Shown here: positions 28,624-41,717 of the stretch, piece after piece | Layout: each line of letters opens with the position of its first letter | Position numbering within the stretch: the first letter of the stretch is position 1 | Assembly: GCF_004138335.1 (NCBI RefSeq) | Contig: NZ_RYFW01000001.1 | Coordinates: 992,001-1,056,000 of the forward strand | Direction of reading: 5' to 3' | From: Peristeroidobacter agariperforans | Lineage (GTDB): Bacteria > Pseudomonadota > Gammaproteobacteria > Steroidobacterales > Steroidobacteraceae | Length of the DNA stretch: 64,000 nt | The notes under the pieces: model-generated | Database searches by the model: none | Told to the model about the DNA's origin: nothing | Seen by the model: the letters and a program-made list of their open reading frames with translations, nothing else | Program-made: the position numbers and the translations under genes

Positions 28624-28917
28624 ATGGATAGCAAGCGCATGAAGTCGATGGCGCACGCGCGCAGTGCACAGCGCGGCCAGGGAATGAGCGAATACATCAT
28701 CATCACCGCGCTCGTGGCGGTAGCCGGCATCGGCTTGTTCGCAGCGTTCGGCGATGTGCTGCAAAACCAAATGGCCGGCATGAGCCGCGAAATGGCGGGC
28801 CAATCGGCCACCCAAGACATCACCGACGCGCAGGCCTCCGCGACGACTGCTCAGAACCGCGCGGCTCAGGCAGACAGCCTCTCCACTTACAACCAGCAAA
28901 CCAATGCGGCTCAGTAA
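28624..28917 (+). CDS. Flp/TadE-type pilin-like protein, first gene of the Tad cluster
   Basis: A 97-residue protein with a basic leader ending in QRGQG, then MSEYIIITALVAVAGIGLF, one hydrophobic helix of pilin type. The Gly before a Glu-Tyr pair fits the class III prepilin cleavage pattern used by Tad prepilin peptidases. The C-terminus (residues about 50-97) is Gln/Ala/Thr-rich and hydrophilic. GGAG lies 7 bases before the ATG. It starts the rightward Tad operon and overlaps the next gene by 14 bases. It may be the major pilin or a minor pseudopilin. Confidence 0.72.
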   Translation: MDSKRMKSMAHARSAQRGQGMSEYIIITALVAVAGIGLFAAFGDVLQNQMAGMSREMAGQSATQDITDAQASATTAQNRAAQADSLSTYNQQTNAAQ

Positions 28918-30112
28918 CCGTCACTGCGGGCAGATCGCGCCGGTCGCGCTGTTCGGTGTGCTCATCAGCAGCGCAGTGCTCGCCGTGATGTTCAACACCG
29001 GACAGAAGGTCACGGAACGATCGCAGGTCGCGAACGCTGCGGACGCCGCAGCGTATAGCGGTGCGGTGTGGACTGCACGCCATCTCAACTTCATCGCTTA
29101 TGCGAATCGAGCCATGGTTGCCAATCACGTCGCCGTCGGGCACTTCATCTCATATGTGAGCTGGGTGCGATATATCAACGACTCAATCTCAGCGATCGAC
29201 CGGGTCACGCAGTGGATTCCATACGTGGGCCAGTATGTCGACCTGGCCGAGCAGATCTCCGCTCAGGTGCGTGACGCGACCGAGCAAGCGGCGGAGATCA
29301 CGGTCCCCGCCATCGATGCGTGGAGTGCAAACATTCGCGCCGCGCAGGCGGAAGCACATGCTTCGCTCGCCTTCCGCAATGTGCAGAGCCTGATGGAGCA
29401 GACGGGTCGTACCTACGATCCGCGTATTCGCATCAACGACGGCGATGCTCTAGCGCGCATGCCGGGCGAATTGCAGCCGCTGCTCGAAGCACAGCTGATG
29501 ACGCAATCGGCGGCTATACCAGCGTTCATACAGCGCTACACAGCAACCCGTGATAGCAACTCCTTGCAGCAACTGGTGAATGCAAGCCTTCGCGGCAACT
29601 CCGATCTGCAGCGTTGGGTGATCGGTGAGCGTGGCTGGCGAGAGAACCTGCTAGCGGTCCAGCTGCGCAAGCGCGGCGCCACGTCGGTCAATCAAAATGC
29701 GAACTTGGCCGACTGGCGTGCGGAGGATCAGATGCAGTTTCGCACTCGCGGCGTGTTCGGCTGGCACAGGTGGCAACGAATCGGCGATCGAGTCAGCACT
29801 GCAAGTGCGCGTGAGTTCGATTCGAACTACGCGGGCGTGCCGGCTTACTACAACGTTGCGGGTTCACCTGGCGACACCTCTCTTCGCATCGCCGCGATTG
29901 CGACCAAGGCTCAGACGAACGTCGCAACCGCCGATCTGCTCGGCATGACCGCGACGGCGCAACCCTTGGCCGTTGCCGCTGTTGCTCGCGTGGAGTTTCG
30001 GCGGCCGCGCGGCTCGGCGTTCGCGTCGTTGGGTGAGCGTCGGCACGAGTACGCCAACTTGTTCAATCCGTTCTGGGAAGCGAAGCTCGCGCCCGTCACG
30101 TGGAGCTTCTGA
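28904..30112 (+). CDS. TadG-like pilus-assembly protein
   Basis: A 402-residue protein whose N-terminus has the TadG pattern: a short basic leader with Gly9, a hydrophobic helix (IAPVALFGVLISSAVLAVMF) and then QVANAADAAAYSGAVW, the characteristic Ala-rich post-helix segment. The remainder is predicted periplasmic, with no motif I recognise. TadG-like proteins are minor Tad components that may contact the outer membrane. It overlaps the preceding pilin-like gene and is followed after 2 bases by a TadE-like gene. Confidence 0.72.
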   Translation: MRLSNRHCGQIAPVALFGVLISSAVLAVMFNTGQKVTERSQVANAADAAAYSGAVWTARHLNFIAYANRAMVANHVAVGHFISYVSWVRYINDSISAIDRVTQWIPYVGQYVDLAEQISAQVRDATEQAAEITVPAIDAWSANIRAAQAEAHASLAFRNVQSLMEQTGRTYDPRIRINDGDALARMPGELQPLLEAQLMTQSAAIPAFIQRYTATRDSNSLQQLVNASLRGNSDLQRWVIGERGWRENLLAVQLRKRGATSVNQNANLADWRAEDQMQFRTRGVFGWHRWQRIGDRVSTASAREFDSNYAGVPAYYNVAGSPGDTSLRIAAIATKAQTNVATADLLGMTATAQPLAVAAVARVEFRRPRGSAFASLGERRHEYANLFNPFWEAKLAPVTWSF

Positions 30113-30114
30113 TC

Positions 30115-30915
30115 ATGCGCTCCACGAATCGTGGCAACGCCATGGTAGAGACTGTCGTCGCCTTGGCCGTGCTCTCGCCGTTCCTCGGCTGCATCGCGCT
30201 GCTCGGCAAGCAGCTCGATCTGAAACATAAAAGCTTCGACGCACTTCGTTACTCGGTTTGGGAGCGCACCGTGTGGAGCGCCACCGGGAAGTCGGCAGCG
30301 GATGTGACGATTGAGGCGCTCGATCGTTCGTTTGGCGATTCCAGCACCGGCCTGGTTGCAATCGATTCGCTGCGTTCGGAAGGCGTGTCGCGAAATTCAT
30401 TCTGGCGGCACTACCGTCAGTCGATGCTGACCTCACCCGTCGGAAGCGCCATCTCACTGCAATCGTCGAACGACACAGTTCCGGTCGACGCAGGGTACGT
30501 GTTAGTGCCTGGGTTGGCGCACGGAACTGGGCCGGTCGGCCTGGCTGCCAATGCGTTGCGGATGGACGATCTCAATTTGAATCGTCGCTCCTTCGCCAGC
30601 GCCACGATTGAAGCAAACATGCAACCGCTGCTCGCAGGTCGCAATTCTGCTCCACTTATCCAACGTGCAACGGGCTCTCTGCTGAGCGACACGTGGTCAC
30701 CGCGGGATGAAAACGAATTCGGCCGAAGAGTGGACCGCATCACGGCCAACGAACTGATCGAAGATCTCGAGCTCCCAGGACGAGTCCTCTCGATGCAAGC
30801 GCCGAGCAAGGGCGGCCCGTTGTATGGCGAAGGTCAGTATGGATGGGATCCGCAATTGCGTCCTCGCTCCACTGCGCTGCCGGCCGCGTACGTCGTCGAG
30901 CGCGAACGCGAGTGA
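30115..30915 (+). CDS. TadE-like pseudopilin
   Basis: A 266-residue protein with the TadE pattern of a basic leader (RSTNRGNAMVE) and a hydrophobic stretch ALAVLSPFLGCIALLG. Glu at the +5-like position is kept. The long C-terminal domain is soluble. The Met at 30115, two bases after the TadG-like stop, is preferred to the Met at 30100, which lies inside the previous gene. TadE-like pseudopilins are processed by the Tad prepilin peptidase and needed for pilus formation. Confidence 0.68.
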   Translation: MRSTNRGNAMVETVVALAVLSPFLGCIALLGKQLDLKHKSFDALRYSVWERTVWSATGKSAADVTIEALDRSFGDSSTGLVAIDSLRSEGVSRNSFWRHYRQSMLTSPVGSAISLQSSNDTVPVDAGYVLVPGLAHGTGPVGLAANALRMDDLNLNRRSFASATIEANMQPLLAGRNSAPLIQRATGSLLSDTWSPRDENEFGRRVDRITANELIEDLELPGRVLSMQAPSKGGPLYGEGQYGWDPQLRPRSTALPAAYVVERERE

Positions 30916-30918
30916 GCC

Positions 30919-31614
30919 ATGCTGATCAACACCAGCCGAATGGTCGTGGTACTTCTCATCTTGTTGGTGCTGCCGGCCAATGCCGAACGCATAACGCTGC
31001 CCGATCTCGCTGCTCCGCCTCAGGGCTCGACGCAATGGATTGCTCGCAGCATGCGACTGAACGGCCTGCCGATGTCGCTCAAGGCTTTTGAGTCGCGGCT
31101 TTCGCCGGGCGCAGTCCTTGCTCACTACGAATCCGAGCTGAAGTCGTCGGGCCGTCATGAAGCGCGTCGCTCGGCGAATTCACCCTGGCAAGTGCTGATG
31201 CTTAGATCGCGCGAGCACTTCATCACAGTGCAAGCGCGTGCAGCCTCAGCAGGAAGCGAGGGAACCATCCTGGTCAGCCCCGCGCTGGATCCCGCGAAGC
31301 TCGAGCTAAGGACTGATTTCCCGCGGCCGTCGACAGTTCGCATCGTCAATCTACAGCAGTACGACGACTCAGGGATGCAGTCGGAGCACATCAGCCTGTA
31401 CAGCGAGCGCGCTCCTTACATCGAAGCGCAGGCGTTCTCGCAGCTCCTGATTACCAACGGCTGGAACATTATCGACACGCGCCCGACGCGAGAGAGCCAT
31501 CGCGGTTTCGTACTGGAAGCGCAGCGTCAGGCAGAGCAGGCACTGCTCGTCATCATCCCTGACGCAGTTCGCCCTGCGACTACTGCAATCGTTGTCACTT
31601 GGAAGAAGTCATGA
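30919..31614 (+). CDS. Secreted protein of the Tad cluster, unknown function
   Basis: A 231-residue protein with an N-terminal hydrophobic signal (MVVVLLILLVLPANA) and no family I recognise. It has two apparent repeats of an alpha/beta unit: one containing FESRLSPGAVLAHYESEL (residues about 57-74), the other PYIEAQAFSQLLITNGW. Each pairs a helix with a following strand. It is likely periplasmic. Its stop overlaps the ATG of the 48-residue pilin-like gene (ATGA), so it belongs to the operon. Confidence 0.6.
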   Translation: MLINTSRMVVVLLILLVLPANAERITLPDLAAPPQGSTQWIARSMRLNGLPMSLKAFESRLSPGAVLAHYESELKSSGRHEARRSANSPWQVLMLRSREHFITVQARAASAGSEGTILVSPALDPAKLELRTDFPRPSTVRIVNLQQYDDSGMQSEHISLYSERAPYIEAQAFSQLLITNGWNIIDTRPTRESHRGFVLEAQRQAEQALLVIIPDAVRPATTAIVVTWKKS

Positions 31615-31757
31615 ACTGCCAGCGCGGTTGGGGCACAGCGGAGTATCTCGCGATCCTCGCCGGATTGATGGTGCTGTGGCGAGGCGCGCAGGCCGCGTTG
31701 GAGTTGCTGGCCGAGCATCACGATGAGTTCTCCTGGGCCCTGATGATTCCGTTCTGA
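31611..31757 (+). CDS. 48-residue pilin-like small protein
   Basis: A very short gene starting inside the previous stop (ATGA). The peptide has a basic leader CQRGWG, then TAEYLAILAGLMVLW, a hydrophobic helix with Glu-Tyr right after the Gly, as in class III prepilins. The tail is short and ends with MIPF. The CpaB gene begins 27 bases later, with another in-frame Met overlapping this stop. The context and leader pattern support a real mini-pilin or pseudopilin. Confidence 0.55.
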   Translation: MNCQRGWGTAEYLAILAGLMVLWRGAQAALELLAEHHDEFSWALMIPF

Positions 31758-31783
31758 TGGTCGAATCGCTCAAGGAACGAGCA

Positions 31784-32581
31784 ATGAAAGGTATCTGGAT
31801 CACCACACTCATGCTGGGCGGCGCGCTCGCGGCTGGCGGCGGAGCGGCGTACTTCGTCAAAGGTTATATCGCCAGCGAAGTGCAAGCAGAGCGCGAGCAA
31901 CTGCAAAAGCAGTATCGACTGATAAACGTCGTCGTTGCGAAGACCGACCTGTCATCCGGCTCAGTGCTTTCAAGTCAAACGGTCGCAGTTCGCGAAGTCC
32001 CCAATACATTCCTGCACGCAGATGCGGTGCGCTCGGAGCAATGGAGTGAGATTGCCGGGCGGATGCTGTCGCGCGCCGTTCGAGGCGGCGAGACGATTCT
32101 TGGTTCGCATCTTGCTCAGGGCGCAGGCGCGGGTTTCTCCGCGCAGCTTCCAGAGGGGATGCGGGCGCTGACGTTCCCGGTCGATGAAGAGGCCTCGATT
32201 GCGGGGATGCTCGCGCCGGGCGATCGCATCGATCTGCTCTTCACGACCGCGGCCGCGAACGACAGTGTCACTTTGCCATTGCTGTTCTCGGTGCCCGTTA
32301 TCGCGACCGGTTTGCGAACCCAGGCCAACGAACATTCGCTGCCGGATCGACTGCAGTCAGGTCCGTTCCGAACCATCACTGTAGCTGTGAGTCCCGCGGA
32401 CGCCGCCAAGATCACACTCGCGCAAGAAGCGGGAAGAATCACGGTGGCGCTTCGCCAGCCCAATGATCAGGCGATCACGCGCATCGCCCGTGTCACGAAA
32501 ACGAGCTTGCTGAGAGGCGAGACGGCCGATGTTCCTGCGAAGCCACGGCTGCGCGTCCAAGTGATCCTGGGCGGAGTTTGA
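31784..32581 (+). CDS. cpaB: Tad pilus assembly protein CpaB/RcpC
   Basis: A 265-residue envelope protein with an N-terminal membrane helix (residues about 4-26). The SAF domain follows, with VVVAKTDLSSGSVLSSQTVA and, later, AGMLAPGDRIDLLFT, both hallmarks of RcpC/CpaB. The SAF fold resembles flagellar FlgA and may bind peptidoglycan or assist the secretin. The Met at 31784 has AAGGA 7 bases upstream; an earlier Met at 31757 overlaps the mini-pilin stop and is the alternative. The secretin gene follows after 3 bases. Confidence 0.86.
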   Translation: MKGIWITTLMLGGALAAGGGAAYFVKGYIASEVQAEREQLQKQYRLINVVVAKTDLSSGSVLSSQTVAVREVPNTFLHADAVRSEQWSEIAGRMLSRAVRGGETILGSHLAQGAGAGFSAQLPEGMRALTFPVDEEASIAGMLAPGDRIDLLFTTAAANDSVTLPLLFSVPVIATGLRTQANEHSLPDRLQSGPFRTITVAVSPADAAKITLAQEAGRITVALRQPNDQAITRIARVTKTSLLRGETADVPAKPRLRVQVILGGV

Positions 32582-32584
32582 ATC

Positions 32585-33646
32585 ATGAGCGTCAGTCTCG
32601 TAGTTGGCGCTTGGCTCATGAGCGCGCTGATGCTCGGCACGCCGGCGACGGAAGCCCTGCAGCACGCACCGGTTGGCGTTCTCTCGGTGCCGGTCGGTCA
32701 AAGCCTGTTGATTCGCTCACCGGGCACGAAGCGGGTGTCGGCCGGCGACGGCGCGACCATCGACATCAAAGTGCTGGACGACACGCAGGAGATCCTGGTG
32801 CTCGGGCGCAAAGCGGGCACGACCGATCTTCGCATCTGGGCTCGTGACGGCTCGAGCGTGGCCTATCTCGTGCAAGTGCTCGGCATCGTCGATCCCATCG
32901 CGACACCGGCGCCGGCCCTGCAAGCCGAGACCACGATTCTCATCAGGGCGAAGCTCATCGAAGTTCGCAAGTCGGCGCTGCGCGATATCGGCGTCGATTG
33001 GGCCGACGTTGCCGCGGGTCCCGTGTTCAGCACGGACAACGGTGTGGATCTGACATCCAGCCTCGACTCGGTCATTCATCTGCTCACGAATCGCGGCGAC
33101 GCTCGTTTGCTCGCCGAGCCAACGCTGACATGCATCAGTGGCGGCCAGGCGGACTTCGTTGTTGGCGGCGAAGTGCCGATCCCCGTTCAGAACCAGGACG
33201 GCGCGCTCAACGTCGTCTTCAAGCAGTTCGGCATCCTGCTCAATGTCGAGCCGCTCGCCAACGAAGCGGGGCTGATTCGCACCAAGGTCGGTGTCGAGGT
33301 TAGCAGCGTCGATAAAGCCAATTCCGTGCTCGGCATTCCCGGCTTCGCGACTCGCAAGACCAATACAGAAATGAACGTGCACTCCGGCGAGCCGATGGTC
33401 GTCGCCGGTCTGTTCAGCGCGGACGACGCGAAAACGGTCACGAAACTTCCCGGCTTCGGCGCCCTGCCGGTCATTGGCGAATTGTTCAAGTCGCGACAGT
33501 TCCGCCGCGGCGAGACGGAGCTGGTAGTGCTGGTTACGCCAGAAATCATCAGCGCCGATTCGAATGTCGTTGGCGAAGCCGTGCAACGGTTCGACCGGCT
33601 CAAGCGCGAATCGGACCAAGCACTCGAGCCACGTTTGAAAGACTAG
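32585..33646 (+). CDS. cpaC: Tad outer-membrane secretin CpaC/RcpA
   Basis: A 353-residue secretin. The N-terminal BON-like/N0 region (LSVPVGQSLLIRS, then VLGRKAGTTDLRIW) precedes the secretin core with LLAEPTLTCISGGQADFVVG, VPIPVQ, GILLNVEPLA and the closing FRRGETELVVLVTPEI. It is shorter than many RcpA proteins, but the whole secretin domain appears complete. It forms the outer-membrane pore of Tad pili. It is immediately followed by the TadE-toxin gene. Confidence 0.9.
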   Translation: MSVSLVVGAWLMSALMLGTPATEALQHAPVGVLSVPVGQSLLIRSPGTKRVSAGDGATIDIKVLDDTQEILVLGRKAGTTDLRIWARDGSSVAYLVQVLGIVDPIATPAPALQAETTILIRAKLIEVRKSALRDIGVDWADVAAGPVFSTDNGVDLTSSLDSVIHLLTNRGDARLLAEPTLTCISGGQADFVVGGEVPIPVQNQDGALNVVFKQFGILLNVEPLANEAGLIRTKVGVEVSSVDKANSVLGIPGFATRKTNTEMNVHSGEPMVVAGLFSADDAKTVTKLPGFGALPVIGELFKSRQFRRGETELVVLVTPEIISADSNVVGEAVQRFDRLKRESDQALEPRLKD

Positions 33647-33680: not shown

Positions 33681-35924
33681 ATGGATGTGACCAAAGCAAC
33701 CCGCCGCGCGTGGCGGCAATACGGCTCTGCAATCGTCGAAGCGACGATCGCGCTGCCGGTGCTGCTCGTCGTCATTCTGGCGCTGATTCAGTTCGGCTTC
33801 GTCTACCAGGCGAAGGCGACGCTCAATCATGCGGCCTTGCAAGCGGCGCGCGCAGGTGCTGTTTCCAATGCGACCCCCGCGGCTATTCGACACGGCCTCG
33901 CTCAGGGGCTGGCGCCGCTCAGTTCACCAGACGCTTCGCTGCAAGGCCTCGCTGAGTCGGTTGCTCGGCTCGAAAGCCAACTGCTCACTGATGCACGCAT
34001 TCGCATCCTCAACCCAACGCGTGAGGCGTTCGAGGATCTCGCGGTTGACGCCGACGGTGTTCGTGAGCTGCCGAACGATCGCCTCCACGCGCGTGACACG
34101 CAGCCGGGCGCCAGCGGTGGACTCAACATTCAAGACGCGAACCTGCTGCGCGTCGAGGTTACGTATGGATACGAGCTGAAGGTTCCGCTGATCGGCGGCT
34201 TCATCTCGCGCCTGCTCGGGCTGACGCACGATAGCGATGCGTTTCATCGGCAGTTGCTGCGTCGGACTCGGTTGCCGATCACGTCGACGGCGACCGTGCG
34301 CATGCAAAGTCCGCTGCGCTTTAGCGAGCTGCTGGTTTCGCGTGCGGATCTCCCCGAGGTCGAACGATTCGCTGCTGGTGCTGGCGAACCGGGCAGTGGC
34401 GAAAGTCACAACGACGATGAAGGTGCGTCCGGGGGTACGGATAGCTCGCCGGTTTCCGCAGATGACGCAGGCAGTTCGCTCGGTGACGGGTTCTTCGGCT
34501 TCGGTCAGGGAGATGCACCGCCTCCGAGCGATGCGGACGATGACGCTGGAGATGATCAAGGCAGCGGCGGCAGTTCGGGCACTGTCAATGACCCGCCTCT
34601 TTGCACGGCTACTGAGCTTGATGCGCCGCCGGTTGCTGAAGATCAAAGTGCGCTCGGCCGCGTTTGGGATGAGCTTCGCAGTCTCGCCGCTGACGCTTAT
34701 GAATTTGTCCGCGGGTTCTGGGAAGGACTGCGGGATCAGATCGGCGACCTCGTCGCTGCAATCACCGATCCGATCGAAACGGCGCGGGGCATTTATGAGC
34801 TGGCGATGTCCTTCATGGAGGACCCCGTCGGCACCGCCCAGACCATCGGCGCCGCGCTGGGTCACGACCTCAGCCAGCTCATCGAGTGCGATGCCTTCGA
34901 TCGCGGCCGCGTGTTGGGCAGCTACGTCAGCCCGGCGTTCATGCTCAAGCTCGCGGCCAAGCTCGCCCGCTTCGGTCGCGCTGGACTTCATGCGGCAGCT
35001 GATGCGACCAAGCGTGAGCTCGGCTGCGCCAGCTTCGCCGCCGACACTTCAGTTTGGAGCGGCGATCGTGATGTTCCCATTCAATCGCTCTCGCCTGGCG
35101 ATTGGGTGGGTGCGCGCAGCGAGCGCGACTATCTCGATCGCCCGCGGCTCGTTACTCACGCCTTCACGCGACGCGCGTCTTCTTATCACGTTGTTGAGAC
35201 TGAAGCGTCGCGGTTTGCAGCTACGGAAGAGCATCCGTTGTGGGTGCAGGGCCGCGGCTGGACCGCCGTTCGCGACATCGAACTCGGCGCGCCGGTTGCC
35301 ACTGCGGGTGGCGACACGCTGGTCCTCGAGAACCGCCGCGTCGACGCGTCGCTGCAGGTTTTCAATTTTACGGTCGCGGAGGATGCCAGTTACTTCGTCG
35401 GGGACGAACGCATTTGGGCGCACAACGCCACGTGCACTCTCCGCGTCCGCTATTCCATCCCTCGCAGCCCAAGCAACTTCACCATCGGCGCCACCGACGG
35501 CGGTCCCGGCGCCTGGTCCTCCATCACCCGCCCCGACACTGATGCCTATCGCTATCAAGAGTTGATCACCGGCGCACCCCGCGGCGTTGAGTACAATGTC
35601 AACGGCGTCAACTTCGACGGCTACGACGCGGACCGCGATGTGTTGTTGGATGCGAAGCACTGGACGCAGGAGTGCCCGTTGGGGGACAAGTGTCGGTATG
35701 AGCCACTGAAACGACAACTAGCGGACGGGCTAGTTACCGAGGCGCGGCGGCAGCTAGATGCGACGCGAGCTACTGCGTCCTCAATTGAATGGCGAGTTGT
35801 CGACGAAGAGATGGCTTTGCGGATCGGCTCAATTCTCGACGAGCGAATTCAGCCTGCCAGCGCTCGGCAAAGGATCACCGTGATCTACACACCCATTTCT
35901 GATGTTCAGGCCACCAGCCGATGA
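33681..35924 (+). CDS. TadE-HINT-Tox-REase-5 polymorphic toxin
   Basis: A 747-residue multidomain protein. Residues 15-60 are TadE-like (GSAIVEATIALPVLLVVIL, then NHAALQAARAGA). Residues about 61-230 form a pseudopilin-like body. Residues 233-304 are an acidic Gly/Ser/Asp-rich linker and 320-445 a helical pretoxin region. Residues 449-582 are a HINT domain: Cys449, ATEEHPLWV at 514-522, and His581-Asn582 at the splice-like end. Residues 620-740 are Tox-REase-5, a PD-(D/E)xK nuclease: YQELITGAP, VNFDGYD (Asp646), LLDAK (Asp657, Lys659), IEWRV and VIYTP. The HINT domain would release the toxin by self-cleavage. The gene sits between Tad secretin and ATPase, so Tad-dependent export is inferred. 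Confidence 0.85.
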   Translation: MDVTKATRRAWRQYGSAIVEATIALPVLLVVILALIQFGFVYQAKATLNHAALQAARAGAVSNATPAAIRHGLAQGLAPLSSPDASLQGLAESVARLESQLLTDARIRILNPTREAFEDLAVDADGVRELPNDRLHARDTQPGASGGLNIQDANLLRVEVTYGYELKVPLIGGFISRLLGLTHDSDAFHRQLLRRTRLPITSTATVRMQSPLRFSELLVSRADLPEVERFAAGAGEPGSGESHNDDEGASGGTDSSPVSADDAGSSLGDGFFGFGQGDAPPPSDADDDAGDDQGSGGSSGTVNDPPLCTATELDAPPVAEDQSALGRVWDELRSLAADAYEFVRGFWEGLRDQIGDLVAAITDPIETARGIYELAMSFMEDPVGTAQTIGAALGHDLSQLIECDAFDRGRVLGSYVSPAFMLKLAAKLARFGRAGLHAAADATKRELGCASFAADTSVWSGDRDVPIQSLSPGDWVGARSERDYLDRPRLVTHAFTRRASSYHVVETEASRFAATEEHPLWVQGRGWTAVRDIELGAPVATAGGDTLVLENRRVDASLQVFNFTVAEDASYFVGDERIWAHNATCTLRVRYSIPRSPSNFTIGATDGGPGAWSSITRPDTDAYRYQELITGAPRGVEYNVNGVNFDGYDADRDVLLDAKHWTQECPLGDKCRYEPLKRQLADGLVTEARRQLDATRATASSIEWRVVDEEMALRIGSILDERIQPASARQRITVIYTPISDVQATSR

Positions 35925-37084
35925 GTAGTGCGATGGACAAGGCCTTGATATGGACAGCAGCTGCCTATCGTCGACCGATGACGCTGCAGGAATATCAATA
36001 TCAAAGCCGCGTAGTGCTAGCTGAGCTAGAAAACATTCTCCCAGAGTTCAAGCGATCCTGGATCATTGGCCAAAATGATGCACAAGCCTTACCAACCAAT
36101 CTCATCGAAATGGATCATGCGATTGCGGATTCGGTTTTCGACGACGCTCATCTTTCAGACTACTTGCACCTTACTGACTCGGGCAGGCTGGGCCCGCAGT
36201 CGCTGTCCAGAATCGGCTTCTCACTAACATACGGTTTGACCGATGCGGAAGGGCAGTCGATGTTGTCGCTTGAGGAGGGCGGTGCCTATCTCGCACTTCA
36301 AGGAACATCTGCTAGCGATGAACCAACGACTTCGTCAGTCCTGGAGCTGGCAGCGCCTTTGCACAGCAGACAGCTCCGCCAAATCCTGCAGATCTTAGTA
36401 GCAAGTTGGCCGGCCAGCTTCGGTGGCGCATCCATCCCTCAGTTTCAGCAAAGCGTGCGTGGTGCCAATCGCGGCTCCTACGCCGGCCAATGGCTCTTCT
36501 ACCTCCCCCTCCCTCATCTCTCGAAATGCCTCCCTCCCGACATCCGTCACGAGCCCTTCGCCAACGGCATTCTCATCGAAACAACCCCTCACATGCCCGA
36601 CGCCAACAATCCAGCCGACGTCGAAGCGGGCAAGCGAGTGCGAGACGTGCTCGATGAATTCGGCTTGGTGAACGACGCGACGTATGCCATCGAGGGCTGG
36701 CCGCCGGACCAGGAGGAAACGATCTACGAGCAGTTCATCAGCGGCGCGCCGGCGGATCGCAAGTACACCGTCCATTGCATCAACTTCGACGGCTACGACC
36801 CCGACCGCAAAGTCTTGCTCTATGCCAAGCTGTTCCGACGGCTGAAGAGACACCCAAAGGAATGGGGCTTCCGCGGCTGGGACGGTCCAGTGTTGAACGA
36901 AGCGAAGCGCCAGGTGCGAGCCGCAGCGAAAGCGGGCGGCGTGCCGATTGAATGGCACATTGGCTTGGAAGAGCCCGTCCACCAAGTTCGCCAGCTATTG
37001 GCCGATCACACCAACATCACCGAGAAGCAGCTCCGCGTGATCTACACGCCACTGGAACAGGCACTGAACCGGCCGCCACCGTAA
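35921..37084 (+). CDS. Imm52-like immunity protein fused to an inactive Tox-REase-5 copy
   Basis: A 387-residue protein, start overlapping the toxin stop (ATGA). Residues about 8-225 resemble Imm52 immunity proteins (WTAAAYRRP, then LAELENILPEFKRSW and a closing beta region). Residues about 260-380 align with the toxin's own C-terminal domain: INFDGYD at 287-293 matches VNFDGYD, IEWHI matches IEWRV, VIYTP is shared. However, the catalytic DxK is VLLYAK: Tyr301 replaces the Asp, while Lys303 stays. So the nuclease copy is probably dead. No signal peptide is seen, as expected for cytoplasmic immunity. The first part is AT-richer than its surroundings (48% GC at 35941-36180). Confidence 0.75.
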   Translation: MSSAMDKALIWTAAAYRRPMTLQEYQYQSRVVLAELENILPEFKRSWIIGQNDAQALPTNLIEMDHAIADSVFDDAHLSDYLHLTDSGRLGPQSLSRIGFSLTYGLTDAEGQSMLSLEEGGAYLALQGTSASDEPTTSSVLELAAPLHSRQLRQILQILVASWPASFGGASIPQFQQSVRGANRGSYAGQWLFYLPLPHLSKCLPPDIRHEPFANGILIETTPHMPDANNPADVEAGKRVRDVLDEFGLVNDATYAIEGWPPDQEETIYEQFISGAPADRKYTVHCINFDGYDPDRKVLLYAKLFRRLKRHPKEWGFRGWDGPVLNEAKRQVRAAAKAGGVPIEWHIGLEEPVHQVRQLLADHTNITEKQLRVIYTPLEQALNRPPP

Positions 37085-37134: not shown

Positions 37135-37338
37135 ATGAAACCGCGAAACCGTCGACCCCACCACGCAGATCCAAGATCCGCACGCAATTGCCATTGCGTA
37201 GCCAGCATCCGTTGTCGCACAAGTTACGTCTGCGAACGAAGCAGCCGCCTGGTCAAAAGCAAGCCACCTTGCAAGCGAACTCGCGCACGAACCAAAGGCG
37301 TGCGCAGCGCGAAGTTCATCGCGGGGCCATTCGCATGA
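37135..37338 (+). CDS. Possible 67-residue Arg/Cys-rich protein
   Basis: An open frame with a plausible AAGGA ribosome site 6 bases before its ATG, and a stop that overlaps the next gene's ATG (ATGA), like other junctions in this cluster. The product is very basic with five Cys residues and no recognisable fold. Composition is unusual for a protein, so it may be a chance frame. It occupies most of the 37085-37334 stretch after the immunity gene; nothing else was seen there. Confidence 0.3.
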   Translation: MKPRNRRPHHADPRSARNCHCVASIRCRTSYVCERSSRLVKSKPPCKRTRARTKGVRSAKFIAGPFA

Positions 37339-37529
37339 CCGCCCACCTGCTCGGCAACCTCATCGGCCGCTTCCTGCTCTCGTACGCGCTCATCTGGCTA
37401 GTAATGTTTCTAATACTGTCACGCCTGAACTGGCGAGACGCGTTCAGACGAACGAATCACTGGAGCGCCCTGATCGCAACGACGACAACATTCTTGATCG
37501 GTCTGATAGCGCACGGAGCCGAGCCATGA
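37335..37529 (+). CDS. Small two-helix membrane protein in the Tad cluster
   Basis: A 64-residue protein with two hydrophobic segments (about residues 12-29 and 46-60) joined by a basic loop (RLNWRDAFRRTNHW). The first helix starts FLLSYALIWLVMFLIL. No family is recognised. It overlaps the next secreted-protein gene by four bases (ATGA). The frame extends upstream to 37188, but that part is low-complexity and the Met at 37335 sits at a stop/start overlap. A role as an accessory membrane factor of the toxin or pilus is only a guess. Confidence 0.5.
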   Translation: MTAHLLGNLIGRFLLSYALIWLVMFLILSRLNWRDAFRRTNHWSALIATTTTFLIGLIAHGAEP

Positions 37530-38074
37530 AGCGAACACCGCTGCTCATCGCCGCCCTATGCGCAATGACCTCGATCGACGCCATCGCAGGAACCAGAGCC
37601 GGCCGTCCCATGAACATTCATCGCATTCCCGAAATGGACCTCGAGATCTGGACCGAGCACGATCCGGAGTGGGAAACCGCGCTGAAGCAGAGTACCAACT
37701 CACTCACATTCACCGCTGAAACGCCCGCACTCACTTATCCGCCGACGCACATGAGCTGGACGATCGCGCCAGTATTGAAGTTCGCGCCTCATGAGCTCGA
37801 GTCAGCCGCGCACGGAGTGCTGCATCAGATGGCGGTTCGTTATCGCACGCTTCCGCCCGAGCAAATCAGCCCTTCGCAGTACGGCGACCTCGTCGGCTAC
37901 GAAGCCACCTTCCAGGCCGAAGCCCAGAACGTACCGGTCGACGTCCGGGTCTTCTGCGGTCATCGCGAAGGCAAGCCGATGGTCGTGATGCAAGTCGTGA
38001 CCTTGAAGGGCAAGCTGTCGCACGTCGCCGAGCACATCCGTCGCTCCTGGACCCATCTTCGCTATCTCGATTGA
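37526..38074 (+). CDS. Secreted protein of the Tad/toxin cluster, unknown function
   Basis: A 182-residue protein with a Sec signal peptide (KRTPLLIAALCAMTSIDAIA). The mature part has one domain with an alternating strand-helix pattern, including LESAAHGVLHQMAVRYRT and a closing HVAEHIRRSWTHLRYLD. No family is recognised. It lies between the immunity region and the ATPase. It may be an accessory envelope factor; function cannot be derived from sequence. Confidence 0.6.
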   Translation: MKRTPLLIAALCAMTSIDAIAGTRAGRPMNIHRIPEMDLEIWTEHDPEWETALKQSTNSLTFTAETPALTYPPTHMSWTIAPVLKFAPHELESAAHGVLHQMAVRYRTLPPEQISPSQYGDLVGYEATFQAEAQNVPVDVRVFCGHREGKPMVVMQVVTLKGKLSHVAEHIRRSWTHLRYLD

Positions 38075-38099: not shown

Positions 38100-39392
38100 A
38101 TGAGCACACCGCACGCCGAGTTGTCAGCGGCCCTGAAGGAACAACTGCAGCCGATGATCCTGCGTGAGCTGGATCTGTTCCGGCGCACAGCGTTGAACAC
38201 ACTCGCAGGTACGGACCTGCGAGCCGAAGCAAAGCAGGCCATCGAGACCATCCTTGCATCGGGCGCCATTCGTCTGCCGCCGAGCATCGAGTTCAACGGC
38301 TTCGTGCAGGAGATGGCCGCAGAGATCATGGGCTACGGCCCTATCGAACCGTACCTGCACGACGACTCGATCAGCGAAGTCATGGTGAACGGCCCGAACA
38401 GAATTTACGTCGAGCGCGACGGATTGCTGTCCGCCGTGCCCGCTCGCTTCATCAGCGCAGAATCCTTGATGCGCGTCATCGAAAGGATCGTTGCGCCACT
38501 GGGTCGTCGCATCGACGAAGGCGTGCCCATGGTCGATGGGCGATTGCCAGACGGCTCGCGCGTGAACGCGATCATTCCGCCGCTATCGCTGATTGGCCCT
38601 ATCCTGACGATCCGGCGCTTCGCCGGTCAGCGCTATTCCATGGTGAAGCTGGTGGACATCGGCGCGCTCACCGCAGCGATGGCCGAGTTTCTGAAGGTCT
38701 GCGTCCAGTATCGAAAGAACATCATCGTCTCGGGTGGCACCGGAACCGGCAAGACGACCTTTCTGAACGCACTGTCGGAATACATTTCGAGTAACGAGCG
38801 CATCGTCACCATCGAAGACGCGGCCGAACTGCGGCTCGCGCAGCCGCATGTGCTGTCGCTTGAAGCCAGACCGGCGAATGTCGAAGGTCGGGGGGAAGTC
38901 ACGATTCGTGATCTGGTGCGTAACGCTCTTCGCATGCGACCTGATCGCATCATCGTCGGGGAGTGCCGCGGTGGCGAAGCGCTCGACATGCTGCAGGCGA
39001 TGAATACGGGCCACGATGGCTCGCTGACCACAGGACATGCCAATTCACCGCGAGATCTGCTGTCGCGCCTGGAAGTGATGGTGTTGATGGCCGGCATGGA
39101 ACTGCCGGTGCGTGCGATTCGCGAGCAGATCGCCTCAGCCGTCGATGTGATCGTGCAGCTGTCCCGATTCAGCGATGGACGGCGGCGGGTCACGGCTATC
39201 GTTGCTGTCGAAGGCCTGGAAGGCGACGTGATACTCACGCAGCCATTGTTCAACTTTCGCCAAAAAGGCATCGGCGCGCACGGAGCTGTGGTCGGGAGCC
39301 ATCAAGGATGCGGTCAGCCGCCGGCGTTCTACGAAGCCCTGGACGACGCCGGTGTACGCCTCGACCGAAGCATCTTTTCCGACGTTGGTTGA
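38100..39392 (+). CDS. cpaF: Tad pilus secretion ATPase CpaF/TadA
   Basis: A 430-residue type II/IV secretion ATPase that powers Tad pilin assembly. The N-terminal domain has YGPIEPYLHDDSISEVMVNG. Walker A is GGTGTGKT at 212-219, followed by RIVTIEDAAELRL, VRNALRMRPDRIIVGE (Walker B region) and MNTGHDGSLTTGHANSP, all diagnostic of CpaF. Length is normal. It precedes tadB and tadC, the usual order. The TadZ/CpaE gene that normally lies before it is absent here; the toxin and immunity genes occupy that region. Confidence 0.95.
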   Translation: MSTPHAELSAALKEQLQPMILRELDLFRRTALNTLAGTDLRAEAKQAIETILASGAIRLPPSIEFNGFVQEMAAEIMGYGPIEPYLHDDSISEVMVNGPNRIYVERDGLLSAVPARFISAESLMRVIERIVAPLGRRIDEGVPMVDGRLPDGSRVNAIIPPLSLIGPILTIRRFAGQRYSMVKLVDIGALTAAMAEFLKVCVQYRKNIIVSGGTGTGKTTFLNALSEYISSNERIVTIEDAAELRLAQPHVLSLEARPANVEGRGEVTIRDLVRNALRMRPDRIIVGECRGGEALDMLQAMNTGHDGSLTTGHANSPRDLLSRLEVMVLMAGMELPVRAIREQIASAVDVIVQLSRFSDGRRRVTAIVAVEGLEGDVILTQPLFNFRQKGIGAHGAVVGSHQGCGQPPAFYEALDDAGVRLDRSIFSDVG

Positions 39393-39408
39393 TCGGAGCA
39401 GACGAAGC

Positions 39409-40257
39409 ATGCAACAGCTCGCTCACACACCTTTGACACCAATCGTCTTCACGGCCGTCGCCGCGCTGCTGGTCGCAGCACTAATCCTGCGAGCTGTGCT
39501 TGGCTATCGCCGCTCCTTCATCGCCGGAATCGGCGCCAGCCTGAAGCAGAGCTTCGTGCTCACCAATCCACGTTCGTTGTTCGCGATCAGCCTGATCATG
39601 ACTGTCGCCACAGGGTCGCTCGCTTATGCCATGGCAGGCCCGGTCGGCCTGGTCAGCGCCACGATCTCGAGTCTCGTCGGGCCGTGGATGATCGCAAGGC
39701 GCATCGCCACGCAACGGCGCAAGCGCTTCGTCTATCAGCTTCCGGACGCGCTACTCGCCCTTAGCTCGGCGCTACGAGCAGGCTCCAATCTCGCGCGAGG
39801 TCTGGAGCTGACGGCTGCGCGTCAACCTGTGCCTCTGAGTCAGGAATTCGGCATCGTGATCGCTGAGCATCGAGTCGGTCGGCCGTTAGCCGATTCGCTC
39901 GACGACCTGCGTCGGCGCGTCGGTGCGCCAGAGCTGGATTTAATGAACACCGCAATGAATGTTTCGCGACACGTTGGCGGCAATCTCGCCGACACGCTCG
40001 AATCCCTCGCCAGAACGCTGCAAGAGAAGGCGCACATGGAAGGCAAGATTGATGCGCTGACCTCCATGGGGCGCGCGCAGGGCTGGGTGGTTGGACTACT
40101 GCCCATCTTCATCGGCTTCGTCTTGTATCAGCAGCAACCGGCGCGCATGAGTCTGCTGTTCACGCAGTGGTATGGCTGGGTCGTGCTGTCGATCGTCGCG
40201 TCAATGATGACGTTGGCCGCGTGGCTGATTCGCAAGATCGTGCGAATCGACGTGTAG
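39409..40257 (+). CDS. tadB: Tad inner-membrane platform protein TadB
   Basis: A 282-residue integral membrane protein of the type II secretion F family. It has two hydrophobic regions near the N-terminus (about residues 10-30 and 60-90), a cytoplasmic GspF domain with LPDALLALSSALRAGSNLAR, and two C-terminal helices. The Met at 39409, 17 bases after cpaF, is preferred because the earlier Met at 39352 lies inside cpaF. It forms the platform with TadC that the CpaF ATPase drives. Confidence 0.9.
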   Translation: MQQLAHTPLTPIVFTAVAALLVAALILRAVLGYRRSFIAGIGASLKQSFVLTNPRSLFAISLIMTVATGSLAYAMAGPVGLVSATISSLVGPWMIARRIATQRRKRFVYQLPDALLALSSALRAGSNLARGLELTAARQPVPLSQEFGIVIAEHRVGRPLADSLDDLRRRVGAPELDLMNTAMNVSRHVGGNLADTLESLARTLQEKAHMEGKIDALTSMGRAQGWVVGLLPIFIGFVLYQQQPARMSLLFTQWYGWVVLSIVASMMTLAAWLIRKIVRIDV

Positions 40258-40262
40258 CAGCC

Positions 40263-41162
40263 ATGAATCTCTACGTAGCAATGTCATTAGCGGGCCTGAG
40301 TTGCTGCCTGGTCTTACTGCTCCCGCTCGCCTTGCGCAGCGGCGCTGAACCATCGCCAGTTCGTGATGAAGCGTGGCGTGACCAGCTGCCGTGGTTGCTG
40401 AGACTTCTTCGGCCCGCAATGCGCTGGTACAGCGAAGCCGTCGACGTCTCGCTCACTTCGCAGCGACGTGAGGTACTTCAAGCTCAGCTCGATGCGGCTG
40501 GCGCGGCGTACATGATCAGCCCCGCGGAATTCCTCGTCATTCGCCGCATCGTCGGTGCAGCCGGCGCGGCCGTCTCCGTCGCCGTCATATTCGGATTCAG
40601 TCTGCGAGACCCGCTCCACATAACAATCGCCGCCGCCCTCGTCCCACTCTCGTTCCTTTACCCCGACCTTCGGCTACGTGAAGTCACAAAGCGCCGCCAG
40701 TCACGCTTCGAAAAGGACTTCCCCTTTTTCCTCGACGTGCTGGTTCTCGCGATGAAGGCCGGCTTGAACTTCATTGCTGCCCTGGAGCAAGCCGTCGGCG
40801 CGCTGCGTGATGGACCGGTCAAGCAAGAATTCTCCCGCTGCTTGCGTGAATCGCGCGCCGGACTTTCACGTCGGGCAGCGCTCGATCGGCTCGCCGCCCG
40901 TATCATGTTGCCGTCGGTGACGAACTTCGCCGCCGCCGTCTCGCAGGCCGAGCAGACGGGCGGTTCACTGGGTGACGTGCTGTCCGATCAAGCACGCCAA
41001 CGGCGACAGGAACGATTCCTGCGCGCCGAGAAGCTGGCGAATCAAGCGCCGGTGAAGATACTGTTCCCCCTGATCGCGCTGCTGTTTCCCACGACGTTCA
41101 TCATCATCGGCTTTCCGATCGTGATTCAGCTGTTGGAGGCGGGCGCGCTCGACTTGTTTTGA
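40263..41162 (+). CDS. tadC: Tad inner-membrane platform protein TadC
   Basis: A 299-residue integral membrane protein, second member of the T2SS-F type platform. An N-terminal helix begins MNLYVAMSLAGLSCCLVLLL. A pair of helices follows near 95-130, then the F domain with KDFPFFLDVLVLAMKAGLNF and FSRCLRESRAGLSRRAAL, and a last pair after EKLANQAPVKILFPL. The Met at 40263, five bases after tadB, is chosen; the frame opens earlier at 40167. It closes the recognisable Tad core. Confidence 0.9.
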   Translation: MNLYVAMSLAGLSCCLVLLLPLALRSGAEPSPVRDEAWRDQLPWLLRLLRPAMRWYSEAVDVSLTSQRREVLQAQLDAAGAAYMISPAEFLVIRRIVGAAGAAVSVAVIFGFSLRDPLHITIAAALVPLSFLYPDLRLREVTKRRQSRFEKDFPFFLDVLVLAMKAGLNFIAALEQAVGALRDGPVKQEFSRCLRESRAGLSRRAALDRLAARIMLPSVTNFAAAVSQAEQTGGSLGDVLSDQARQRRQERFLRAEKLANQAPVKILFPLIALLFPTTFIIIGFPIVIQLLEAGALDLF

Positions 41163-41183: not shown

Positions 41184-41717
41184 ATGAGACCCCTGGAATT
41201 GCGCACCGCCACCGGACGGTGCATCGCGCGTCGCGTGCACATGGCTTGTTCGTTCCGCTCACGATGCACGGGCCTGCTACGTCGCCGAAGCATGCCTGAG
41301 GATGAGGGCTTGCTCTTGATGCCGGGAAGCAGCGTGCACACGCTTGGAATGCGCTTCAACATCGACGTGGTGTTTCTCAGCCGTCAGATGCGAGTACTGG
41401 CACTGGCAGAGAACGTGACGCCGTGGCGCATTGTGATCGCACCGAAGGGCACGGCCCGGGTCCTGGAGTTTGCAGCCGGCAAGATCGCAGCTACGCAACT
41501 GGCAGTCGGCATATATCTGATCGTCGACCGTCCCTCGGACGATCCCAGTGAACGGTCGACGCGAAAACTGCCGCGTGGGGGTTACCTTCAGTGCGACCGA
41601 ACGTCCATTCAATTCTCGTTGCGGTTGCCGCGCCAGTGCGAGGAGCCTAGAACCCCGCGGCCTTGTCGGCCCGAACCCGTCGCTCGCGCAACGATGAAGC
41701 CGAGCGTTGAAAGTTGA
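41184..41717 (+). CDS. DUF192 domain protein at the end of the Tad operon
   Basis: A 177-residue protein with a DUF192 domain in residues about 20-115. The signature parts are FRSRCTGLLRRRSMPEDEGL, then MPGSSVHTLGMRFNIDVVFL and LALAENVTPWRI. DUF192 proteins are small beta-rich proteins, often found near Tad clusters; their function is unknown. A ribosome site AAGGAAG precedes the ATG. The tail after residue 120 is basic and low-complexity and overlaps, on the other strand, the last 71 bases of the peptidase-hydrolase gene. Confidence 0.78.
   Translation: MRPLELRTATGRCIARRVHMACSFRSRCTGLLRRRSMPEDEGLLLMPGSSVHTLGMRFNIDVVFLSRQMRVLALAENVTPWRIVIAPKGTARVLEFAAGKIAATQLAVGIYLIVDRPSDDPSERSTRKLPRGGYLQCDRTSIQFSLRLPRQCEEPRTPRPCRPEPVARATMKPSVES

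What the first reader, a model, noticed from the sequence alone, without database searches (positions are those of the whole stretch)
33681..35924. A Tad-cluster TadE pseudopilin fused to a self-cleaving HINT domain and a Tox-REase-5 nuclease toxin
Seen: one 747-residue frame has a TadE-type N-terminus (GSAIVEATIALP...), a Gly/Ser/Asp linker, a HINT domain (Cys449, ATEEHPLWV, His581-Asn582) and a Tox-REase-5 domain with Asp646, Asp657-x-Lys659 and the ending VIYTP. It sits between the Tad secretin and ATPase genes. Known: polymorphic toxins use modular N-termini for export and HINT domains for release, and Tad-like (Kil) machines have been linked to contact-dependent killing in Myxococcus. Inferred: this protein is inserted into or passed by the Tad machine as a pseudopilin, then the HINT domain frees the nuclease. 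A toxin using a pilus subunit as its delivery head would be a notable export route.
Basis: partly seen in the sequence, partly recalled or inferred. Interest (0 to 1): 0.92.

Follow-up and report, generated by a model that had tools for sequence, protein, structure and literature searches.

The report
Toxin carried on a pilus subunit
In bacteria related to Steroidobacter, a subunit of a hair-like surface pilus is built as one protein with a self-cutting domain and a nuclease toxin, and relatives carry other toxins on the same pilus subunit, which suggests that these pili deliver toxins to rival cells.

Summary
The 747-residue ORF (33681-35924 +) matches Pfam TadE, PT-HINT and Tox-REase-5 above curated cut-offs. 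It lies in a Tad cluster between secretin and ATPase, with an immunity-like gene after it.

It is not one odd fusion. The same TadE head (61-91% identical in the genus, 36-51% further away) carries different C-termini: HINT-Tox-REase-5, HINT plus an unassigned end near a SUKH gene, RHS-Tle1, RHS-DUF6765, RHS plus unassigned. Elsewhere a bare TadE precedes a separate RHS gene. This is polymorphic-toxin behaviour with a Tad minor pilin as the constant part.

Ties to the Tad machine: in five same-genus genomes the head is the only TadE found, RHS-fused in two; 21 of 21 head-carrying genomes tested have the Tad ATPase (in one it is broken), whereas 11 of 18 lack the T6SS sheath gene.

Best reading: toxin-bearing TadE joins the Tad tip or pseudopilus and HINT or RHS frees the toxin. 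Export and killing are inferred. My literature searches found no TadE-toxin fusion. Verdict: real, recurrent in one TadE family, a new trafficking head for polymorphic toxins.

The parts
28624..28917 (+). Flp-type major pilin candidate (97 aa, GQGMSEYIIITALVAVAGIG...)
   Evidence: Motif search of window ORFs; assignment by inspection, no family search run
28904..30112 (+). TadG-like minor pilin (Pfam Tad, PF13400)
   Evidence: Pfam E 3.3e-8, above cut-off; syntenic in relatives
30100..30915 (+). TadF-like pseudopilin candidate (GNAMVETVVALAVL... N-terminus)
   Evidence: No Pfam hit; pilin-like N-terminus by inspection; conserved in the same place
31599..31757 (+). 52-residue Flp-like ORF (RGWGTAEYLAILAG), possible adapter pilin
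   Evidence: Motif search; weak, overlaps the end of the preceding gene
31757..32581 (+). CpaB/RcpC
   Evidence: NCBIfam TIGR03177 E 3.6e-46, above cut-off
32585..33646 (+). Tad secretin (RcpA/CpaC-like)
   Evidence: Pfam Secretin E 2e-36, T2SS-T3SS_pil_N E 1.4e-12
33681..34400 (+). TadE minor-pilin head (residues 1-240): prepilin-type site G15|S16, E20, hydrophobic helix, conserved RILNPTxEAFxDF...IPNxxL...SGxNIQDANLL...VP core
   Evidence: Pfam TadE; alignments A1 and A2; hydropathy
34401..34670 (+). Gly/Ser/Asp-rich linker (residues 241-330), the least conserved part
34671..35024 (+). Pre-HINT region (residues 331-448), the most constrained part (dN/dS 0.04-0.08)
   Evidence: 44% identical over pre-HINT plus HINT in G101
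35025..35426 (+). HINT autoprocessing domain, Cys449 to His581-Asn582
   Evidence: PT-HINT in Pfam; profile A6 matches the bacterial intein-like domain 2lwy from position 3 to 134, E 5e-19; Cys and C-terminal His-Asn present in 5 of 5 proteins (the rows of A6 were cut at these motifs)
35427..35921 (+). C-terminal toxin region with Tox-REase-5 nuclease domain (D646, D657-x-K659)
   Evidence: Pfam; these residues conserved in 4 of 4 orthologues; weak alignment to Tox-REase-5 structures 9oz0/7dym
35921..37084 (+). Immunity-like protein: variable Imm52-like N-part fused to a conserved Tox-REase-5-like domain in which the DxK Asp is Tyr. Its ATG overlaps the toxin stop (ATGA)
   Evidence: Pfam Imm52 E 0.0024 and Tox-REase-5 E 8e-5, both below cut-off; conservation; overlap
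37335..37529 (+). Small hydrophobic ORF, similar by eye to the N-terminus of a larger gene in L102
   Evidence: one match below cut-off in Pfam; comparison by inspection
37526..38074 (+). Accessory protein u37526 (182 aa, signal-peptide-like N-terminus by inspection)
   Evidence: Found in 2 of 369 class genomes, the two with intact TadE-HINT fusions; no Pfam or PDB match
38100..39392 (+). TadA ATPase
   Evidence: TIGR03819 E 6.5e-101 (337.9 bits, below its cut-off of 373), T2SSE E 7.5e-65
39352..40257 (+). TadB (T2SSF)
   Evidence: Pfam E 1.8e-13
40167..41162 (+). TadC candidate
   Evidence: Not scanned on its own; weak BLAST similarity to TadB and conserved order
41184..41717 (+). DUF192 protein, recurrent end of these Tad clusters
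   Evidence: Pfam E 1e-16; synteny

Best explanation
The gene encodes a polymorphic toxin whose trafficking domain is a Tad minor pilin (TadE). Likely course: (1) Sec/SRP inserts the protein by its TadE helix, with the C-terminal part outside the inner membrane; (2) a prepilin peptidase cuts at Gly15|Ser16; (3) the TadE helix joins the TadEFG tip or pseudopilus, which the ATPase and TadB/TadC extend through the secretin, so the C-terminal cargo is presented at, or pushed out of, the cell surface; (4) HINT (or, in relatives, the RHS shell) cuts itself and frees the C-terminal toxin; (5) the toxin (here a predicted nuclease, elsewhere a Tle1-type phospholipase and others) damages neighbouring cells, while kin are protected by the coupled immunity gene. 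Shown by sequence: domain architecture, recurrence, swapping of C-termini, tie to the Tad machine, immunity-type genes. Inferred: steps 1 to 5 themselves.
For: Three Pfam domains above cut-off in one conserved ORF inside a Tad cluster. The same TadE head is fused to RHS-DUF6765 (a short match, 36 of 325 positions) and RHS-Tle1, RHS-Tle1 in two more families, RHS plus an unassigned end inside a Tad cluster, and HINT plus a different, unassigned C-terminus with a SUKH gene 0.6 kb downstream, inside a Tad cluster. Split versions, TadE followed by a separate RHS gene with a signal-peptide-like start (by eye), occur in G007 and G013, G015 and G698. In an unbiased TadE survey of 143 class genomes, 5 of 28 TadE places had open frames of 700 aa or more, and these 5 carry RHS or HINT. 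G002, G007, G008, G012 and G013 each have exactly one TadE match, this head; in G002 and G008 it is the toxin fusion, while in the five Tad clusters no TadE lies between secretin and TadA. TadA is present in 9 of 9 head-carrying same-genus genomes (in G013 broken into two frames) and in 12 of 12 others tested. Head and TadA trees co-vary over 25 rows from 24 genomes (Mantel r 0.72, 0 of 5000 permutations as high) while the label HINT/RHS/none needs 7 changes on the head tree. T6SS sheath gene not found in 11 of 18, including the window genome and G001, G003, G101, G113, G094. Immunity types fit the targets: no signal peptide seen on the gene after the nuclease; lipoprotein-like genes (by inspection) after the Tle1 fusions of L067 and L099, with a displaced copy of the toxin end (82% identical over 68 aa) between duplicated such genes in L067. 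Herrou et al. 2025 (PMC12075869; abstract, section 16 and passages read) show that minor-pilin tips are needed for contact killing by the Myxococcus Tad pilus, and that one tip has a killing activity whose toxin is not identified.
Against: Most heads show no toxin: RHS or HINT was found in 9 of the 30 loci examined, of 32 head-bearing genomes; 2 had no locus and some loci end at contig edges. In G002 and G008 the RHS-fused heads lie away from the Tad cluster. G013, which has the split form, has its TadA broken into two frames, so its Tad machine may be dead or misassembled. Bulky folded RHS shells must still pass or ride outside a secretin. 7 of 18 genomes have a T6SS sheath gene, among them G002, G008 and G011, the last one a TadE-HINT species. 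The Imm52 match is below cut-off. Outside this head family nothing was shown: the two longest further TadE frames among the listed rows of a 398-genome phylum survey were overlapping-frame artefacts, and that list was cut. Tree co-variation is also expected from plain vertical descent, and the C-terminal label is clustered on the tree (as few as 7 changes in 0 of 200 shuffles), so swapping is real but not frequent.
Confidence: 0.6

Rival explanations
1. T2SS-like release: the TadE part only docks the protein to a Tad pseudopilus or to the inner membrane. HINT or RHS self-cleavage in the periplasm frees the toxin, which the Tad apparatus pushes through the secretin as a soluble protein, so the toxin never sits on a pilus tip.
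For: A HINT domain stands directly before the toxin, with its Cys and His-Asn present in 5 of 5 proteins. The split genes (bare TadE plus a signal-peptide-like RHS protein) look like pseudopilin plus secreted substrate. PMC12075869 itself raises a T2SS-like role for the Kil pilus (passages read).
Against: Covalent fusion is not needed for a T2SS substrate, yet it recurs; in two genomes the fusion is the only TadE match.
Confidence: 0.25
2. The TadE segment is only a membrane signal-anchor captured by domain shuffling. The toxins reach targets by another route (T6SS, lysis, vesicles) and the Tad machine is irrelevant.
For: Some fused genes are unlinked to Tad genes and 7 of 18 genomes carry a T6SS sheath gene.
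Against: The head is conserved over about 230 residues, not just the helix. The head-bearing genomes tested have TadA. Fusions lie inside Tad clusters in G000, G001, G003, G011, G094 and G101. 11 of 18 lack the T6SS sheath gene.
Confidence: 0.09
3. The C-terminal parts are not weapons: they are adhesive or structural tip domains (RHS shells, HINT remnants) or toxins used inside the cell, for example against phages.
For: No activity has been tested; RHS proteins can have surface roles (recalled); the next gene carries an altered nuclease-like domain of unknown use.
Against: D646, D657 and K659 are conserved in 4 of 4. Different toxin families, immunity-type neighbours and a displaced toxin end are usual marks of antagonism.
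Confidence: 0.06

Closest known systems
Polymorphic toxin systems (Zhang et al. 2012, PMC3482391; passages read)
   Same: Variable C-terminal toxin, HINT or RHS before it, cognate immunity gene after it; Tox-REase-5 is listed there with Imm52 as partner
   Different: The trafficking head is a Tad minor pilin. The Tox-REase-5 row lists T2SS, T5SS, T6SS and PrsW, and PrsW, FilH and RHS as companions (no HINT); 'pilin' occurs 0 times in the text held (first 300,000 of 357,715 characters)
Myxococcus Kil Tad pilus tips (Herrou et al. 2025, PMC12075869; abstract, section 16 and passages read)
   Same: Tad pilus with TadEFG-like minor-pilin tips whose variable domains adapt the pilus to killing
   Different: There the variable part sits on the TadG-like KilN and no toxin domain is identified in the parts read; here it sits on TadE and is a recognisable polymorphic toxin with an immunity-like gene
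T6SS Rhs effectors with PAAR heads and Tle1/Tli1 phospholipase-immunity pairs (recalled; related titles seen in the listing)
   Same: RHS shell followed by a C-terminal toxin such as Tle1, with lipoprotein-type immunity
   Different: The N-terminal PAAR head is replaced by a TadE pilin head
T2SS pseudopilins and the TcpB-TcpF pilus-dependent export of Vibrio (PMC12075869 introduction, passage read)
   Same: A type IV-filament minor pilin carries or docks a secreted protein
   Different: There the minor pilin docks a separate protein; here the cargo is covalently part of the minor pilin

Membership tests
TadE minor pilins of Tad/Flp systems | TadE N-terminal domain with prepilin-type site (Gly before the cut, Glu at +5) and hydrophobic helix | tested here: met
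   Pfam E 9.7e-13; G15, E20 and helix
TadE minor pilins of Tad/Flp systems | Encoded with secretin, CpaB, TadA, TadB, TadC and Flp pilin | tested here: met
   Window cluster (Flp and TadC by inspection or similarity only); synteny in three species. Not met for the RHS-fused relatives in G002 and G008, which are unlinked
TadE minor pilins of Tad/Flp systems | Cut by prepilin peptidase and built into the pilus | not testable with these tools
   Two Peptidase_A24 matches exist in the genome; processing untested
Polymorphic toxins | Constant N-terminal trafficking part with swapped C-terminal toxin domains | tested here: met
   Five different C-termini on one head family (no BLAST match between the REase-5, G101, DUF6765, Tle1 and G094 toxin ends), of which two are unassigned; 7 label changes on the head tree
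Polymorphic toxins | Immunity gene directly downstream | tested here: inconclusive
   Next gene overlaps the toxin stop by 4 bases, but Imm52 (17.9 of 25 bits) is under its cut-off; the SUKH gene in G101 is well above cut-off but 0.6 kb downstream
Polymorphic toxins | Secreted and toxic to competitors | not testable with these tools
   -
PT-HINT autoprocessing domains | N-terminal Cys, T-x-x-H block, C-terminal His-Asn (motifs recalled) | tested here: met
   Cys449, T515-E-E-H518 and H581-N582; Cys, block-B His and His-Asn in 5 of 5 proteins, Thr is Ser in one; match to 2lwy from position 3 to 134 of the profile
Tox-REase-5 nucleases | FDG and (E/D)-x-K catalytic motif | tested here: met
   FDG at 645-647, DAK at 657-659, conserved in 4 of 4; the published list gives FDG and EAK (passage read), so Asp for Glu is a variation
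Kil-type predatory Tad systems | Tip cluster homologous to kilL/M/N with the variable domain on KilN (TadG) | tested here: not met
   The variable domain is on TadE; the TadG-like gene is 402 aa with no further domain above cut-off. Homology to the kil genes was not tested
T6SS effectors (PAAR/Rhs) | PAAR or other T6SS-marker domain and a T6SS in the genome | tested here: not met
   No PAAR match in the scanned proteins; no VipB match in the window genome

The most novel reading that the evidence does not exclude
Tad (type IVc) pili form a toxin-delivery system in their own right: the minor pilin that primes the pilus is itself the weapon, so every pilus is capped by an exchangeable polymorphic toxin (nuclease, phospholipase and others) that is presented to a touching cell and freed there by HINT or RHS self-cleavage. 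In species whose only TadE is the toxin fusion, pilus assembly and toxin loading would be the same act.
Probability: 0.4. Interest if true: 0.95.

Novelty: new variant of a known kind. Interest (0 to 1): 0.86.

Why it matters
A Tad-like pilus has been shown to be needed for contact killing in Myxococcus, but the toxin was reported as still to be discovered (PMC8460266, passages read) or only as a T3SS*-independent activity of Tip4 (PMC12075869, passages read). A family of Tad minor pilins with recognisable toxin, self-cleavage and immunity modules gives candidate Tad-borne toxins with predicted activities and natural controls: relatives with the same head but other toxins, or none. It makes 'are Tad pili secretion systems for toxins?' directly testable in named cultured relatives (Steroidobacter agaridevorans, S. 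gossypii, Peristeroidobacter soli and Povalibacter uvarum; names; that they are harmless environmental bacteria is recalled). It also adds a trafficking head to the polymorphic-toxin catalogue.

Tried and rejected
Chance or artefactual fusion: rejected by three full-length orthologues and dN/dS. A one-off fusion: rejected by the class survey. T6SS delivery of the window protein: made unlikely, no VipB match in the window genome (genome 97.9% complete). Generality beyond this head family: looked for in a 398-genome phylum sample. With profile A2, 10 of 398 genomes matched, the window's own and 9 of the same class. With Pfam TadE, 139 of 398 genomes matched and the row list was cut by the tool; two long frames among the listed rows (G732 1405 aa, G698 665 aa) proved to be small TadE genes at the end of an overlapping open frame. 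G193 (584 aa) was not inspected. L211 (G561, 506 aa) was fetched and gave no hit to the reference proteins. u37526 as a DcrB/Eag-like chaperone was suspected by eye, but a profile search of the PDB gave nothing, so no claim is made. Head fold by PDB profile: only chance-like matches. The C-terminal ends of G101, G094 and the split RHS genes stay unassigned. Structure models could not be made.
Full report
WHAT IS THERE. The ORF 33681-35924 (+) encodes 747 residues. Pfam finds TadE (15-57), PT-HINT (510-583, the C-terminal part of the model) and Tox-REase-5 (622-707), each above its curated cut-off. The parts in order are: a prepilin-type N-terminus (Gly15|Ser16, Glu20) with a hydrophobic helix; a conserved extra-membrane head to about residue 240; a Gly/Ser/Asp linker; a highly constrained pre-HINT region (dN/dS 0.04-0.08); HINT from Cys449 to His581-Asn582; and the toxin with D646, D657-x-K659. 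A profile of the HINT region matches a solved bacterial intein-like domain (2lwy) from position 3 to 134 (E 5e-19). The toxin aligns weakly to solved Tox-REase-5 proteins 9oz0 and 7dym at the catalytic stretch (E 0.47-0.95, so supportive only).

THE CLUSTER. Around it lie an Flp pilin candidate (28624), a TadG-like gene (28904), a TadF-like candidate (30100), CpaB (31757), the secretin (32585), TadA (38100), TadB (39352), a TadC candidate (40167) and a DUF192 gene (41184). Two prepilin peptidase matches are present in the genome.

THE NEXT GENE. 35921-37084 overlaps the toxin stop by four bases. Its N-part resembles Imm52 (below cut-off), the listed partner of Tox-REase-5. Its C-part is a second Tox-REase-5-like domain, 35% identical to the toxin, in which the Asp of the DxK motif is Tyr in 5 of 5 same-genus copies; in the G203 copy the triad reads FTR in place of YAK. 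The C-part is more conserved than the toxin (pN 0.04-0.08 against 0.12-0.17), while residues 1-255 vary strongly (pN 0.37-0.39 against L019-L021, 0.21 against the partial L031 copy) and the first 186 codons have lower G+C (0.54 against 0.62). I read it as an immunity protein with a fast-changing specific half and a kept, probably inactive, toxin-like half whose use is unknown.

POLYMORPHISM. A search of 60 relatives with the whole protein gave 14 genomes with a match, the window's genome among them; G009 matched only through the next gene. Three others have full-length orthologues. G002 and G008 keep only the head, followed by RHS plus DUF6765 (1977 aa) or RHS plus Tle1-like phospholipase (1871 aa). 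G007 and G013 have a bare head of about 325 aa followed by an RHS gene with a signal-peptide-like start (by eye). G012 has the head alone. A class-wide search with the head profile matched 32 of 369 genomes. Of these, 30 gave loci and 9 of the 30 have RHS or HINT fused or next to the head: G000, G013, G265, G142, G113, G101, G094, G406 and G203, from seven families; the other 21 show neither within the 1.5-kb flanks held. G265 (head and RHS in one frame) and G406 run off contig ends, and G203 is a degraded remnant next to an orthologue of the immunity-like gene. Pfam confirms TadE-RHS-Tle1 in G113 and G142, TadE-RHS in G094 (inside a Tad cluster), and TadE-PT-HINT in G101 (inside a Tad cluster) with a different C-terminus and a SUKH gene 0.6 kb downstream. 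In G406 Pfam found DUF6531 and RHS; its head is cut by the contig end. Candidatus Thiodiazotropha (L065) has a head followed by a truncated RHS start. G015 and G698 have the split form beside Tad genes.

CONTROL. An unbiased TadE (PF07811) survey of 143 class genomes found 28 TadE places in 18 genomes. Five have frames of 700 aa or more, members of this head family with RHS or HINT; the other 23 range from 66 to 584 aa. In a phylum survey with the same model the row list was cut; two more long frames among the listed rows were artefacts of overlapping frames. So the phenomenon is well supported within this head family and not shown outside it.

TIE TO THE TAD MACHINE. The 9 head-carrying same-genus genomes all have the TadA orthologue, though in G013 it is broken into two frames; of the 5 without a head match, 3 show no TadA at the threshold used and 2 have it (G004, and G009, which carries the immunity-like gene at a contig edge). 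Twelve of twelve other head-bearing genomes tested have TadA. G002, G007, G008, G012 and G013 have exactly one TadE match, this head, and in their Tad clusters no TadE lies between secretin and TadA (a small ORF lies between in G002). In G002 and G008 that only TadE is the toxin fusion. Trees of head and TadA over 25 rows from 24 genomes co-vary (Mantel r 0.72, 0 of 5000), while the label HINT/RHS/none (24 labelled rows; fused, split and truncated RHS pooled) needs 7 changes, HINT two; the label is nevertheless clustered, as few changes in 0 of 200 shuffles. The T6SS sheath gene was not found in 11 of 18 carriers, including the window genome; the 7 with it include G002, G008 and G011. A 182-residue exported-looking protein (37526-38074) occurs in 2 of 369 class genomes, the two with intact TadE-HINT fusions, and beside the toxin or immunity gene in the close relatives.

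IMMUNITY LOGIC. After the nuclease comes a gene without an evident signal peptide; after the Tle1 fusions of L067 and L099 come lipoprotein-like genes (all by inspection). In L067 two such genes (58% identical) flank a displaced copy of the toxin end (82% identical over 68 aa). These are usual marks of polymorphic toxin loci (recalled).

LITERATURE. Searches for TadE or minor pilins with polymorphic toxins, Rhs or HINT gave no report of such fusions in the listings (open-licence PMC papers only, no preprints). [quoted passage not shown] Herrou 2025 shows that minor-pilin tips are needed for Tad-dependent killing and proposes TadEFG tips elsewhere, with the variable domain on TadG (abstract, section 16 and passages). 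Zhang 2012 lists Tox-REase-5 with T2SS, T5SS, T6SS and PrsW export and Imm52 (passages).

CONCLUSION. This is a real, recurrent class: polymorphic toxins with a Tad minor-pilin head. The delivery step is inferred. I give 0.6 to Tad-dependent delivery with TadE as the head (tip or pseudopilus) and 0.4 to the stricter reading that each pilus is toxin-tipped.

Noticed in passing
35921-37084: Immunity-like protein is a mosaic: variable N-part (first 186 codons G+C 0.54) and a very conserved Tox-REase-5-like C-part with an altered DxK motif, kept even in distant G203 (L133:7440-8657). The toxin itself varies far less than the immunity N-part, the reverse of what an arms race would suggest at first sight.
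   Followed up: partly
37526-38074: 182-aa protein found in 2 of 369 class genomes, those with intact TadE-HINT fusions: a candidate dedicated export or adapter factor without known family.
   Followed up: partly
38100-39392: TadA of the window clade is about 430-440 aa, while same-genus relatives without the inserted toxin module (L048-L052) have 562-575 aa TadA with an extra N-terminal region that looks like an FHA domain (by inspection). Loss of this region coincides with the toxin module lying just upstream.
   Followed up: no
31599-31757: 52-residue Flp-like ORF between 30919 and CpaB, possibly an adapter pilin like KilK/KilO.
   Followed up: no
L067:14571-15990: Two paralogous lipoprotein-like genes flank a displaced toxin-end fragment 82% identical to the end of the TadE-RHS-Tle1 protein.
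   Followed up: yes
L133:7151-9436 (G203): Degraded TadE-HINT remnant and Tox-REase-5 remnant beside an open immunity-like orthologue: looks like an orphan immunity gene kept after toxin decay.
   Followed up: partly
L053:8321-10008 (G013): TadA of G013 is broken into two overlapping frames: frameshift in the gene or an error of the assembly.
   Followed up: no
L054, L055 (G000:C10, G003:C3): A second, diverged Tad cluster (TadA about 51% identical) in the four TadE-HINT species, with TadE frames of 158-338 aa.
   Followed up: no
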